In this document: positions 27,615 through 32,960 of the stretch, one piece after another
How positions within the stretch are numbered: the first letter of the stretch is position 1
Layout of the letters: each line of letters starts with the position of its first letter
Source: Desulfurellaceae bacterium
GTDB taxonomy: Bacteria > Desulfobacterota > Binatia > Bin18
Reading direction: 5' to 3'
Length of the DNA: 33,791 nt
Assembly: GCA_021296095.1 (NCBI GenBank)
Contig: JAGWBB010000029.1
Location: 1-33,791, forward strand
Notes under the pieces: generated by a model
What the model was told of the DNA's origin: nothing
Seen by the model: only the letters and a program-made list of their open reading frames with translations
The model's database searches: none
Translations under genes and position numbers: made by a program

Positions 27615-28094
27615 TCAGGCTGTCCCGCGCCCAGGCACGGGCGTGTCGGCCACCGACCCTACCAGGCGAACCAGACCCTGCGCAACATGCGCAGCCTGGC
27701 CGGGTTCGACCGCCCCGGCCTGCCTGAGCCGCCGAATAATGGCCTGGGACTCGCCCCGGTTGGTTCTCAGCGCCCAGCGCAGGGCCGTATTGCCGTAATT
27801 ATCCGCGACATTGACATCCGCTCCTTTGGCCAGCAGCAGTTCGACCACCGGCAGATGCCCCCGGCGTGAGGCGATAATCAGCGCCGTATGGCCGAAGCTG
27901 TCGTCCCTGACGTTCACGTCCACCCCGCCGTTGAGCATGCTCTCCAGAGTAGCTACATCCCCCGAGCCGGCCGCGTCAAAGAAGGCCGCCTCATGGGCCA
28001 GCGGCGCCGGCTCGCTGCTCGGCTTTCTCACTTCGAGCCACACCAGCACCAGCACTCCGGCACCGACCAACAAGATCCATCGTGTGATATTCAT
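27615..28094 (-). CDS. membrane-anchored ankyrin-repeat protein
   Basis: The 159-residue product has an N-terminal hydrophobic anchor (RWILLVGAGVLVLVWL, residues about 5-20) and three ankyrin-like repeats at about residues 35-130, seen in DVATLESMLNGGVDVNVRD, HTALIIASRRGHLPVVELLL and ADVNVADNYGNTALRWAL. It probably holds a partner at the periplasmic face. GAGAGGG precedes the start. It stands between the thiolase (16-bp gap) and the antitoxin gene. Function is unknown. Confidence 0.88.
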   Translation of the reverse strand: MNITRWILLVGAGVLVLVWLEVRKPSSEPAPLAHEAAFFDAAGSGDVATLESMLNGGVDVNVRDDSFGHTALIIASRRGHLPVVELLLAKGADVNVADNYGNTALRWALRTNRGESQAIIRRLRQAGAVEPGQAAHVAQGLVRLVGSVADTPVPGRGTA

Positions 28095-28749: not shown

Positions 28750-29703
28750 CTACGAATTGCTCAGCAAGACTTTGAGCACGCCCGGCCGGGCCGCATGCTG
28801 CGCTGCCTCAAGCCCACCGCTCAACGGATAGACTTTATCAACCAGCGGCGAGACACGCACCCGTCTCTGTGCCAGTGCGTCCAGGGCCGGACCAAACAGC
28901 CCGCAGCGGGACCCGACAACCGTCACTTCGTTGATCACCAACGGCGCCAGAGACAGGCGGTGGTGTGCGGCCAGCGTGCTCTTCAGCACCAGCGTCCCGC
29001 GTGGCCGAACCGTCTGCATGGCCAGGGCCAGTCCGCCCTCCGAGCCGGTGGCTTCGACAACGATATCGGCCCCGAACATTTTCCAACCGGCCAACAAGCT
29101 CGTCCGCAGCCCGAGGCCGGCGACAAGTCCGAGCTTGTCTGCATGTTTCCCAACGAGCGTCACCCGCGCGCCGGTCTGATGCAGCACCTGGGCGCATAAC
29201 AACCCCAGCTTTCCGTCGCCAAACACAACGACCTCGGCGTTTGTCGGCACGGAAACCTGTTCCAGTATCTCGAACGCGGCGGCCAGGGGCTCGGTGAAAA
29301 CCGCTTCTTCATCGGCAACCGTGTCCGGCACGACATGCAGGTTTGCAACCGGCACGGCCATGTACTCGGCAAAGCTGCCATCAGCGTTCAGAATGCCCAT
29401 GACCTGCCGGGTCGGGCAGTGGCGCGGCATGCCGCCACGGCAGGTATCACACGTTCCGCAGGCAAAATTGATCTCACCCACGACCCGTTTGTCCATCAGC
29501 CCGGACGGCCCTTCGGCCACCTCACCGACAAATTCGTGGCCGGGCACTCCGGCAAAATCCATATAGCCTTTGAAGATCTGGAGGTCGGTCGAGCAAATAC
29601 CGGCCAAGCGCACCCGGACCAGCGCAAATCCGTCGCGGACGGAGGGAGCGGCATAGCGCCCCTCAAGCCGCAGCTGTCGCCCGTCCCAGTGGAGTGCCCG
29701 CAT
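28750..29703 (-). CDS. zinc-dependent alcohol dehydrogenase (MDR superfamily)
   Basis: The 317-residue product has the MDR zinc-enzyme pattern: catalytic Cys37 (GICSTDL), His56-Glu57 (GHEFVG), structural zinc Cys81/84/87/95 (CGTCDTCRGGMPRHC), and a nucleotide-binding FGDGKLGLL at residues 160-168. It oxidises an alcohol or reduces an aldehyde or ketone with NAD(P). The start follows GGGAGGAACG. It lies between the toxin remnant (17 bp) and the defence-like pair (36 bp) on the same strand. The neighbours do not say what the substrate is. Confidence 0.93.
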   Translation of the reverse strand: MRALHWDGRQLRLEGRYAAPSVRDGFALVRVRLAGICSTDLQIFKGYMDFAGVPGHEFVGEVAEGPSGLMDKRVVGEINFACGTCDTCRGGMPRHCPTRQVMGILNADGSFAEYMAVPVANLHVVPDTVADEEAVFTEPLAAAFEILEQVSVPTNAEVVVFGDGKLGLLCAQVLHQTGARVTLVGKHADKLGLVAGLGLRTSLLAGWKMFGADIVVEATGSEGGLALAMQTVRPRGTLVLKSTLAAHHRLSLAPLVINEVTVVGSRCGLFGPALDALAQRRVRVSPLVDKVYPLSGGLEAAQHAARPGVLKVLLSNS

Positions 29704-29739
29704 CGTTCCTCCCGTTTCCCAGCGCAGAGCAGGCCCGCA

Positions 29740-30258
29740 TCAGCCAGCCGCCCCCGCCAGCCCTCGGACTTTTTCCCGAAAATAGCAGAAGCTGGGAGAG
29801 GCGTTATTCTCGACATCCATGTGTGGAGCGATAGTCTTCGACCAGTTTGATTTTTCCCTGCCTACCGCCTGCCCTCCCTCACCTGCGAGCTTCTTTAATC
29901 CGCCACGGCAGACCGCGTCGGCCAGCAGTTCCCACGTCCCGCAAATCGCGTCGTTTTCGTAACGATTCAGTGGATTGTCCCTGGCTCTCGGATACGCTGC
30001 TTTGACCGCAGGAATATCGCCTAACAGCCATGCCTCATAGCCGGCAAATGTCCTTCCATGTCCCCTGAGCAGTCTGGGGAGTTGGTTGAGCAACTGGCGC
30101 TTACGGGCATCATCCGTGCTCTTGAGGTTTTTAGGAATGCGACCAATGCCACGATAGGCTTTGACGTCAAACCTATGTGGCTTGTCGATGATCTTATCCA
30201 GCAAAATGTCGAGCATCGCTTTGCCGGACTGGTCTTCAACGAGTCCCTCGAAGTGCAT
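29740..30258 (-). CDS. DUF4276-like partner of an AAA ATPase, apparently lacking its central region
   Basis: The 172-residue product starts MHFEGLVEDQSGKAMLDILL, with a Toprim-like Glu motif, then AYRGIGRIPKNLKSTDDARK and PRLLRGHGRTFAGY. It then continues EAWLLGDIPAVKAAYPRARD, ICGTWELLAD, and PHMDVENNASPSFCYFREK. DUF4276-type proteins, as I recall them, are about 220 residues and carry an acidic DLD-type core between the FAGY and EAWLLGD blocks. That stretch of about 50 residues is missing here, with the frame kept. The start at 30258 follows AGAGGTAATTGG. It begins 4 bp after the ATPase stop, so the two are co-expressed. The deletion inference rests on memory of the family. Confidence 0.68.
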   Translation of the reverse strand: MHFEGLVEDQSGKAMLDILLDKIIDKPHRFDVKAYRGIGRIPKNLKSTDDARKRQLLNQLPRLLRGHGRTFAGYEAWLLGDIPAVKAAYPRARDNPLNRYENDAICGTWELLADAVCRGGLKKLAGEGGQAVGREKSNWSKTIAPHMDVENNASPSFCYFREKVRGLAGAAG

Positions 30259-30262
30259 CCAA

Positions 30263-31519
30263 TTACCTCTTGTCAAGATAATCGCTGTACCACAGGCCGC
30301 CCAACGGCAATCCTTCCGCGACCATATTATTCACAAGCGGATCGTCGCTGGCCCGCCGAATCGTTGAAAAACCGTCCGCCTCTTTCGGGTCAAGCGCATC
30401 GACGAGGTAGGGTTGATGGGTCGTAATAAAAACCTGTGAGGCATTATTCTGGCGGCTCGCGTGTTCACGAAATTCATGTGCAAGCGTTTCCAGAAGCTTG
30501 TGGTACAGGCCGTTTTCCGGCTCTTCGATGCACAGGAACGGCGGCGGAGTCGGATCATTGAGAAGCAAAAGATACGCGAACACCTTCAGCGTCCTGTCTG
30601 ACATCTGCTGAGCGTAAAAGGGGTCTTGAAAGCCTTTGTCGTTGAACTTGAGCAGCAACCGGCCGTCGGCAGTTTTTTCCGTTGCAATTTTGTCTATACC
30701 CGGAATTCTCTCGGCGATCTCTTTTAGAATAGCCTGGAACTGCTTCGGATGTTCTCGCTCCATGAACTGTACGACATTGCTGAGGTTGTCGCCATGCACG
30801 TTGAGACGCTGTTGTGGACCGGCCAGAGGTAGGCCGCGCGCCGCATCTGGAGTGAAGTAGCTCAGATACCATCCTTCGATGAAGCGGCGAAAAGCGACAA
30901 TTCTCGGGTGTTTCTCTAACTCACCAAGCGTGGCGATGCCAAGCTTGCGTGGGTCTTGCAAGTCAATGGTTTCGACATCTTCGAATCGCGTCTCCCCCTC
31001 TTCGAGCGATTTTTCTAACTTAAAAGAATCGAAACCTTCCGCTTCTTCATCGACCTGATGGCCCGCTTGGCTGCCCCTCCACGCCCAACCACGGCCTTGA
31101 TGGAGTGTGAGGAAACAAAGTAGTCGGTCGTTTTCCCGGTATTCATGCATCAATTCGCGCATCACATAGGGGCGCCCGGATTCGTCTATCTCGATTCCAA
31201 TTTCGTAGGTGATAGGAGGGACATTGGCACATGCTCTATAATACACCTTGAACTCGATTGGACCTGTCTGTCCCTGTGTCCGTAGTCTCTCGAAGCCGCC
31301 GTGTCCGCGTGCATCACAGGCTTCCTCAACGCCGAACTTAAGGGCATCCGCGAGAAACCCGAACGCATCAAACAGGGCGCTTTTTCCCACCCCGTTTTTA
31401 CCAATTACCACAGTCATGGGCGTAAGCGGGTCGTCTTGACGCTGGTACCACAACCGACCCACTGTCACGTCCTTGAGCGACTTGAAATTTACTACTCTGA
31501 AGCCTTCTATTGTGGCCAT
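30263..31519 (-). CDS. AAA-family ATPase (OLD/AAA_21-like), defence-type
   Basis: The 418-residue product has Walker A GKNGVGKS (residues 40-47), Walker B PFLCIEEPENG (327-337) with an H-loop FITTHQPYL (364-372), and an ABC-like signature at about 305-313. That signature reads QQMSDRTLK, where the usual Gly is Arg309 (AGG codon). Such ATPases occur in OLD, PARIS-like and abortive-infection systems. The partner DUF4276-like gene starts 4 bp after the stop. Only GAGACGTGAC precedes ATG 31519, so the ribosome site is weak. The 214-bp divergent gap to the CoA-transferase has a hairpin GGCGGCG/CGCCGCC (31651-31674). Defence function is inferred from pairing. Confidence 0.88.
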   Translation of the reverse strand: MATIEGFRVVNFKSLKDVTVGRLWYQRQDDPLTPMTVVIGKNGVGKSALFDAFGFLADALKFGVEEACDARGHGGFERLRTQGQTGPIEFKVYYRACANVPPITYEIGIEIDESGRPYVMRELMHEYRENDRLLCFLTLHQGRGWAWRGSQAGHQVDEEAEGFDSFKLEKSLEEGETRFEDVETIDLQDPRKLGIATLGELEKHPRIVAFRRFIEGWYLSYFTPDAARGLPLAGPQQRLNVHGDNLSNVVQFMEREHPKQFQAILKEIAERIPGIDKIATEKTADGRLLLKFNDKGFQDPFYAQQMSDRTLKVFAYLLLLNDPTPPPFLCIEEPENGLYHKLLETLAHEFREHASRQNNASQVFITTHQPYLVDALDPKEADGFSTIRRASDDPLVNNMVAEGLPLGGLWYSDYLDKR

Positions 31520-31733
31520 GTCACGTCTCTATGGGAGAGCGTCTGGGTTTCAGCATCCTGGGCTATGCCGCTCAACACTCACCCGAGGTATTCGTCTCTT
31601 TATCTTGTCTCCACGCCTCTCCGTATAAACTGCTCGACCACGACAGACAAGGCGGCGCAGCCTGGCACGCCGCCGCCCCGTGCGCTATACAGGGGCGTCA
31701 TACCCCGCACGAGAATTTCTGAAGGGAGAGCCT

Positions 31734-32960
31734 ATGGCCACGACACCCCAACAGCCGCCCATGCTGGCCGGCGTCACCGTCCTGGATTTCACCCAATATC
31801 TGGCCGGCCCGACGGCCACCCGCCTGATGGCCGAACTCGGGGCCGAGGTCATTAAGGTCGAACAGGCCCAGCAGGGCGACCCGTCGCGCACCATCCCCTT
31901 TCTCAAGGACGGCCGCAGCGTCTACTTCATCCAGCAAAACCGTGGCAAGAAGAGCATCTGTCTGGATTTCAAAAAGCCCGAAGCAATCGAGCTAATCAGA
32001 GCGCTGATTCCGCACGTGGATGTGGTCATTGAGAACTATGGACCGGGCGTCCTGCAACGCCGCGGCCTGGACTACGAGGCGCTCAAGCAGCTCAACCCGG
32101 GCATCATCATGTGCTCAATCTCGGCCTTTGGCCGCCAGGGTCCGCTGTCCCACCTGACCGGCTACGATTACATCGCCCAGGCGTTTTCCGGCATCATGCA
32201 TATGACCGGCGACCCGGACGGTCCGCCCCGCTTTGTCGGCGTGGCGATTGCCGACGGGGTCGCCGGGGTACACGCCTTTGCCGCCCTGGGCTATGCCCTG
32301 CTGCACCGCGACCGGACCGGCCAGGGCCAGTATATCGACCTGTCGATGGTCGATTCCCTGTACCATATGCAATCGGTCGAGGTGCAGCTGTACGCGGCCA
32401 GCAAGGGCGCCTATACCCCGCTGCGGTTCGGCATCCATCACCGGCTGTCGTGTCCCCAGGGCGTTTTCAAGGGGCCTGAGGGCTATATGGTGATTCTGGC
32501 CCTCAACCGCCAGTGGCCGAATGTGGCGCGGGCGCTGGGCAGACCGGAACTGATCGACGACCCGCGCTTCTCGTCGGCCGGCAGACGCGCCAAACACAAG
32601 GAAGAGCTGATCCCCATGATCGAGGCCTGGCTGCGAAGCTTCCCGACTGATGAGGCCGCCCTCAAGGCTCTGGCCGACCATAGGGTGCCGGCCGGCCCGG
32701 TCATGTCAATCGAAGAGACGGTTTCCCACCCGTATTTTGCGGCCCGAAAAATGGTCCGCCAGGTCCCGGACCGGATTCTGGGTGAGGTGACCATCCCCGG
32801 CTTTCCGTTCAAGTTCTCGGCCTTCCCGGACAGCCTCGACCTTGAAGCGCCCTTCCTCGGCGAACACAACGACGAGGTGTTCGGCCAGTATCTGGGACGC
32901 TCCCCGGACAGCCTCGACGCCCTGTACAAGCAGGGCGCCCTGTACCGGGGCGACAGTTAG
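31734..32960 (+). CDS. CaiB/BaiF family CoA-transferase
   Basis: The 408-residue class III CoA-transferase moves CoA between carboxylic acids. It has the family start LAGVTVLDFTQYLAGPTATRLMAELGAEVIKVEQ pattern (split by helices), NRGKKSICLDF, and the catalytic Asp174 in the VAIADGVAG segment. SAFGRQGPL and HYFAARKM-like ends are also typical. The start at 31734 follows GGGAGAGCCT; an upstream 18-residue extension has no ribosome site. The reaction's acyl groups are unknown; in this genome it may feed the same acyl-CoA pool as the dehydrogenase, synthetase and thiolase. Confidence 0.94.
   Translation: MATTPQQPPMLAGVTVLDFTQYLAGPTATRLMAELGAEVIKVEQAQQGDPSRTIPFLKDGRSVYFIQQNRGKKSICLDFKKPEAIELIRALIPHVDVVIENYGPGVLQRRGLDYEALKQLNPGIIMCSISAFGRQGPLSHLTGYDYIAQAFSGIMHMTGDPDGPPRFVGVAIADGVAGVHAFAALGYALLHRDRTGQGQYIDLSMVDSLYHMQSVEVQLYAASKGAYTPLRFGIHHRLSCPQGVFKGPEGYMVILALNRQWPNVARALGRPELIDDPRFSSAGRRAKHKEELIPMIEAWLRSFPTDEAALKALADHRVPAGPVMSIEETVSHPYFAARKMVRQVPDRILGEVTIPGFPFKFSAFPDSLDLEAPFLGEHNDEVFGQYLGRSPDSLDALYKQGALYRGDS

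What the first reader, a model, noticed from the sequence alone, without database searches (positions are those of the whole stretch)
29740..31519. Two-gene ATPase/DUF4276-like module, candidate anti-phage system with unusual changes
An OLD-like AAA ATPase is followed 4 bp later by a DUF4276-like protein, the order expected for an ATPase sensor with a Toprim-like effector. The effector seems to lack the central acidic segment (junction at 30034-30039), and the ATPase signature Gly is Arg309. Either the system is decaying, or the effector works without the usual nuclease centre.
Basis: partly seen in the sequence, partly recalled or inferred. Interest (0 to 1): 0.6.

Follow-up and report, generated by a model that had tools for sequence, protein, structure and literature searches.

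The report
Disabled two-gene phage-defence system (HEC-01)
This is a damaged copy of a known candidate anti-phage system: the cutting protein has lost the 48-residue core that should hold its catalytic metals, and its ATPase partner carries a change at a glycine found in every homolog examined, so the pair is most likely a recently broken defence system rather than a new one.

Summary
A 418-aa AAA_21/ABC-type ATPase (30263-31519, -) is followed after 4 nt by a 172-aa protein (29740-30258, -). PADLOC models identify the pair as HEC-01A/HEC-01B. Intact HEC-01B homologs match Pfam DUF4276; the shortened window copy matches no Pfam family. It lacks exactly 48 residues (144 nt, in frame) at the 30036/30037 junction. 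The predicted fold of an intact homolog best matches the Toprim-plus-helical region of Class 2 OLD nucleases (Z 9.5). The lost piece is beta3-alpha3-beta4 with the DxD pair; DxD is present in 71 of 71 distinct homologs covering the site. ATPase G309 (signature motif SDGTLK) is Gly in 44 of 44 homolog alignments and Arg here. Retained parts evolve no faster than in relatives, so the damage looks recent. The module is low in G+C and sits between two genes that are close neighbours without it in relatives; relatives of the pair lie in defence islands and on plasmids. A second HEC-01-like pair in this genome has a frame-broken ATPase. Best reading: a recently disabled, horizontally acquired HEC-01 system. 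An ATPase-only function, or an assembly error, remains possible.

The parts
30263..31519 (-). HEC-01A-like ATPase, 418 aa (AAA_21/ABC type), with Walker A, Walker B and H-loop motifs intact
   Evidence: PF13304, 6.1e-38; PDLC04182 HEC-01A, 2.5e-170, profile 1-402 of 406
29740..30258 (-). HEC-01B-like (DUF4276/OLD-type Toprim) protein, 172 aa, with a 48-aa internal deletion
30034..30039 (-). Deletion junction: Tyr74|Glu75, 144 nt missing relative to homologs; lost residues include D87, D89, E120 and E121 of intact relatives
30593..30595 (-). ATPase codon 309 AGG (Arg) in the signature motif MSD-R-TLK; Gly in all homologs
31301..31303 (-). ATPase codon 73 CAC (His) where the close homologs have Arg
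31382..31402 (-). ATPase Walker A (GKNGVGKS region), intact
30259..30262 (-). 4-nt spacer between the two genes; Shine-Dalgarno-like AAGAGG overlaps the end of the ATPase gene
   Evidence: sequence

Best explanation
The module is a horizontally acquired HEC-01 pair that has recently been disabled. In intact relatives, HEC-01A is an ABC/AAA_21-type ATPase and HEC-01B is a separately encoded OLD-type Toprim with a helical C-terminal part, so the pair works like a split OLD nuclease (inferred): the ATPase senses infection and holds or licenses the Toprim, which cuts nucleic acid with two metals held by a strand-1 Glu, the DxD pair after strand 3, and acids at the start of the following helical part. 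Here a 144-nt in-frame deletion removed strand 3, the next helix, strand 4, DxD and an acidic pair (shown by alignment and model), so metal-dependent cleavage should be lost (inferred). The ATPase also carries Gly309Arg in its signature motif (shown), which probably impairs ATP-driven dimer closure (inferred).
For: Family: PADLOC HEC-01A 2.5e-170 and HEC-01B 1e-65 in two pieces. Deletion: 48 aa absent only in the window; DxD in 71 of 71 distinct homologs covering it. Of 52 columns invariant in close homologs, all 11 deviations of the window protein lie in the deleted stretch; the other 41 are intact. Fold: AlphaFold2 model of the intact L003 protein, pLDDT 80, pTM 0.80, strands 2-7, 29-34, 80-87, 113-118; best structural matches are four OLD Class 2 C-terminal structures, Z 8.8-9.5 over 154-161 residues, above all other rows. 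The window model has only strands 2-7 and 29-34, best Z 5.8, rmsd 6.3. OLD catalytic residues: E400, D455, D457 metal A; E404, T506, E508 metal B; K562 (PMC6755086, PMC7049728). ATPase G309 is Gly in 44 of 44. No relaxed evolution of retained parts: dN/dS 0.13-0.16 (ATPase) and 0.14-0.20 (B) against relatives, no consistent rate excess, so the loss is recent. The second HEC-01-like pair of the genome (C74) has a three-frame ATPase although an 86%-identical intact relative exists. The missing piece is not elsewhere in the genome. Acquisition: G+C about 53% against 62-65% in flanks; the ADH and CoA-transferase flanking genes are close divergent neighbours without the pair in G002, G004 and G007.
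Against: Both reading frames are open; the deletion keeps frame; 41 of 41 retained invariant residues of B and the Walker motifs of A are intact. Single metal-ligand changes in OLD are tolerated in vitro, and the ABC signature is degenerate in Class 1 OLD proteins, so G309R alone need not inactivate. No sister strain carrying the same pair was found, so the age of the damage is not measured directly. HEC-01 activity itself was not tested here.
Confidence: 0.78

Rival explanations
1. The ATPase still works and gives protection alone; the shortened partner is a dispensable or structural subunit. This would resemble E. coli YbjD, whose Toprim domain could be deleted without loss of its anti-phage phenotype.
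For: YbjD result (PMC13261556). Window ATPase has intact Walker A, Walker B and H-loop and dN/dS about 0.15.
Against: The signature glycine, invariant in all homologs, is Arg here. In P2 OLD both ATPase and Toprim mutations abolished activity. Homolog loci keep the two genes paired with an intact DxD.
Confidence: 0.09
2. The deletion is an assembly or binning error in a fragmented assembly of 185 contigs, and the organism has an intact gene.
For: No reads available. The length is an exact multiple of three, and all retained invariant residues are intact, as expected if the true gene were intact.
Against: No repeats at the junction that would collapse; no stray copy of the segment in the genome; the independent G309R change is not explained by such an error.
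Confidence: 0.1
3. The shortened protein has gained a new role, as a DNA-binding or inhibitory subunit without catalysis.
For: The retained acids (E8, E123 equivalent) and the conserved Lys are kept; the model retains a helical C-terminal part of moderate to high confidence.
Against: Two of four central strands are gone; single occurrence; strand-1 Ile5 is Gly here; the partner ATPase is also altered.
Confidence: 0.03

Closest known systems
HEC-01 (PADLOC: HEC-01A ATPase + HEC-01B)
   Same: Both genes, order, strand and near-zero spacing; best matching models; relatives lie next to HmaC and Avs2, inside a type III R-M system, or near a type IIG R-M enzyme
   Different: HEC-01B lacks the 48-aa catalytic core; HEC-01A has G309R; the window copy has no strong defence neighbours
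OLD family nucleases, Class 2 (GajA-like; 6NK8, 6NJV)
   Same: Predicted fold of intact HEC-01B matches their Toprim-plus-helical C-terminal region, Z 8.8-9.5; strand-1 Glu, DxD and a Lys in equivalent order
   Different: Separate polypeptide from the ATPase; none of the neighbours scanned was a UvrD-like helicase (partial scan); the window copy has lost DxD
PARIS (AriA ATPase + AriB Toprim)
   Same: Two-gene ATPase plus Toprim-type effector; an AriA model matches the ATPase at 3.9e-36
   Different: No AriB model matches the partner, and HEC-01 models score far better
HEC-04 / IbfA, single-gene ATPase-Toprim
   Same: ATPase plus Toprim logic in a phage-interference gene (PMC12111858)
   Different: Fused in one protein and with a complete Toprim

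Membership tests
HEC-01 | HEC-01A-type ATPase over the full model | tested here: met
   PDLC04182, profile 1-402 of 406, 2.5e-170
HEC-01 | HEC-01B partner directly downstream, full length | tested here: not met
   Partner present, but 48 aa missing; profile matched in two pieces. It is a defective derivative, not an intact member
HEC-01 | Anti-phage activity | not testable with these tools
   Needs a plaque assay
DUF4276 (PF14103) | Pfam match | tested here: not met
   Window protein: no Pfam match; intact homologs match, two of three tested above the curated cut-off and one just below it
OLD-type Toprim nuclease | Toprim glutamate on strand 1 | tested here: met
   E8 retained, invariant in alignment A1
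OLD-type Toprim nuclease | DxD pair after strand 3 | tested here: not met
   Deleted in the window; 71 of 71 covering homologs have it
OLD-type Toprim nuclease | Fold match of the intact family to OLD C-terminal structures | tested here: met
   Z 9.5, rmsd 3.7, 157 aligned with 6NK8 for homolog L003; for the window protein only Z 5.8, rmsd 6.3
OLD-type ABC ATPase | Walker A, Walker B, H-loop | tested here: met
   Motifs intact
OLD-type ABC ATPase | Signature-motif glycine as conserved in HEC-01A | tested here: not met
   Arg309; Gly in 44 of 44 alignments

The most novel reading that the evidence does not exclude
A Toprim partner without its DxD centre is kept as a non-catalytic subunit, and the ATPase, with a changed signature motif, gives protection by another route (for example ATP-dependent DNA binding).
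Probability: 0.06. Interest if true: 0.5.

Novelty: new member of a known kind. Interest (0 to 1): 0.22.

Why it matters
By itself this is a broken copy of a known candidate system. Two points have wider use: the structural link between the DUF4276/HEC-01B family and the Toprim-plus-helical region of Class 2 OLD nucleases, which predicts catalytic residues (E8, D87, D89, E121, E123, K182 in homolog L003 numbering) for a family listed in Pfam as of unknown function; and a natural deletion mutant that removes just the predicted catalytic core while the rest is kept.

Tried and rejected
Direct sequence search of solved structures: no relative of B (best E 0.084, unrelated acyltransferases) and none of A. 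Foldseek alone gave no significant match for intact B; the OLD match comes only from the second look. Repeats at the junction as cause of the deletion: no direct repeat of 14 nt or more in 29400-32000, and no clear microhomology seen when the breakpoints are laid on homolog DNA. Relaxed selection as a sign of old decay: not seen, though dS is near saturation for B. Short natural variants in other genomes: none in 148 genomes of the class or 395 of the phylum; other entries without DxD are fragments (L075, L105). The same-genus genome G001 gives no information: its contig starts inside the upstream gap of the CoA-transferase. Literature on DUF4276 by name: no paper in the library. The plain Foldseek list for the window model (ticket) was not collected.

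Full report
The observation. Two genes lie on the minus strand: an ATPase of 418 aa (30263-31519) and, 4 nt after its stop, a 172-aa protein (ATG 30258, stop at 29740). The ATPase matches Pfam AAA_21 (6.1e-38) and, best of all, the PADLOC model HEC-01A (2.5e-170, profile 1-402 of 406). The second protein matches HEC-01B (1e-65) as two stretches, the better one being residues 74-165 on profile positions 119-210. Intact homologs match DUF4276; the window protein matches no Pfam model.

The deletion. Aligned with homologs from 29 fetched loci and five related genomes, the window protein lacks 48 residues between GRTFAGY and EAWLLGD. The lost stretch reads, in a close relative, PPNYPAAVIVVCDLDDKCLKAFRQELFAVLNACNPKPETRFCIAIEEG. 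A wider survey with a profile of the family found 75 distinct aligned sequences; all 71 that cover the site have D-x-D, and those that do not are the two window pieces and two fragments. The segment is not elsewhere in the same genome. So the loss belongs to this copy alone.

The ATPase. Of about 109 columns invariant in 21 close homologs, the window differs at two: R73H and G309R. G309 is the glycine of the signature motif (MSDGTLK); it is Gly in 44 of 44 homolog alignments, down to about 32% identity (a few loci overlap, so distinct genes are slightly fewer). The Arg codon is AGG, one transition from GGG. Walker A, Walker B and the H-loop are intact. The number of deviations is not unusual (homologs show 0-7, apart from one frame-broken copy); the kind and place of G309R is.

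What the partner is. The AlphaFold2 model of the intact homolog L003 (pLDDT 80, pTM 0.80) has four strands, 2-7, 29-34, 80-87 and 113-118, followed by helices. Foldseek alone gave nothing significant, but VIA-align put four structures of the C-terminal region of Class 2 OLD nucleases at the top, Z 8.8-9.5 over 154-161 residues, with a full-length OLD, small Toprim proteins and retron Eco2 also listed. In OLD nucleases metal A is held by E400, D455 and D457 and metal B by E404, T506 and E508, with K562 aiding catalysis (PMC6755086, PMC7049728). The order in the family, E8 on strand 1, DxD (87, 89) at the end of strand 3, EEGEAW (120-125) after strand 4, K182 in a late helix, is consistent with this; the pairing of E121 and E123 with T506 and E508 is my inference, since no residue-level structural alignment was available. 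The deletion takes strand 3, the following helix and strand 4. The model of the window protein keeps two strands and the helical part (pLDDT 77.7), and its match to OLD falls to Z 5.8 at rmsd 6.3.

Setting. The module has 52-55% G+C at its core against 62-65% in flanking metabolic genes (thiolase, alcohol dehydrogenase, CoA-transferase, amidase). In G004, G002 and G007 the orthologs of the two flanking genes are divergent close neighbours with 0.5 to 1.3 kb between them and no HEC-01 pair there, so the pair was inserted in the window lineage, or lost or moved in the others. Relatives of the pair lie beside HmaC and Avs2 (G068), near a type IIG R-M enzyme (G007), inside a type III R-M system (L011), on a conjugative plasmid and in phage-like regions. 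The window copy has no strong PADLOC neighbour; the ankyrin-repeat protein at 27618-28094 matches one candidate model weakly.

Age of the damage. dN/dS between window and relatives is 0.13-0.16 for the ATPase and 0.14-0.20 for the retained part of B, like the relatives among themselves, with no consistent excess of window-specific replacements. All 41 retained invariant positions of B are intact. Long neutral drift is therefore unlikely; the damage is recent, or there is still some constraint, or the deletion is an assembly error. Other HEC-01 copies are also broken: in this genome the pair on C74 has an ATPase split over three frames although an 86%-identical intact relative exists, L023 has a stop in Walker B, L018 a frame break, and G013 holds a C-terminal piece of B only. 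Loss is thus ordinary in this family.

Conclusion. The most likely reading is a horizontally acquired HEC-01 system, working like a split OLD nuclease when intact, that was recently disabled here. What is shown: membership of both genes by profile, the deletion, its uniqueness, G309R, the fold match of the intact family. What is inferred: nuclease action of HEC-01B, loss of that action here, impaired ATPase, and the defence role. The YbjD case, where the Toprim domain was dispensable for an anti-phage phenotype, keeps an ATPase-only function open.

Noticed in passing
L045 (G000:C74:9418-11290, minus strand): A second, more distant HEC-01-like pair in the same genome: ATPase split over three frames (pieces about 83-87% identical to intact L038 in G015), partner gene open.
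   Followed up: partly
L075 (G013:C39:40938-41126): Orphan C-terminal remnant (profile positions 154-216) of a HEC-01B gene in a genome of the same family.
   Followed up: partly
L043 (G068:C114:3784-13366): An intact HEC-01 pair sits directly between an HmaC-like ATPase and an Avs2-like protein.
   Followed up: no
window 27618-28094: Ankyrin-repeat protein with a weak match to the PDC-M72A model.
   Followed up: no
L023 3707-3711: Stop codon within the Walker B motif (LCI*EPENGL) of a Nostoc HEC-01A-like ATPase.
   Followed up: no
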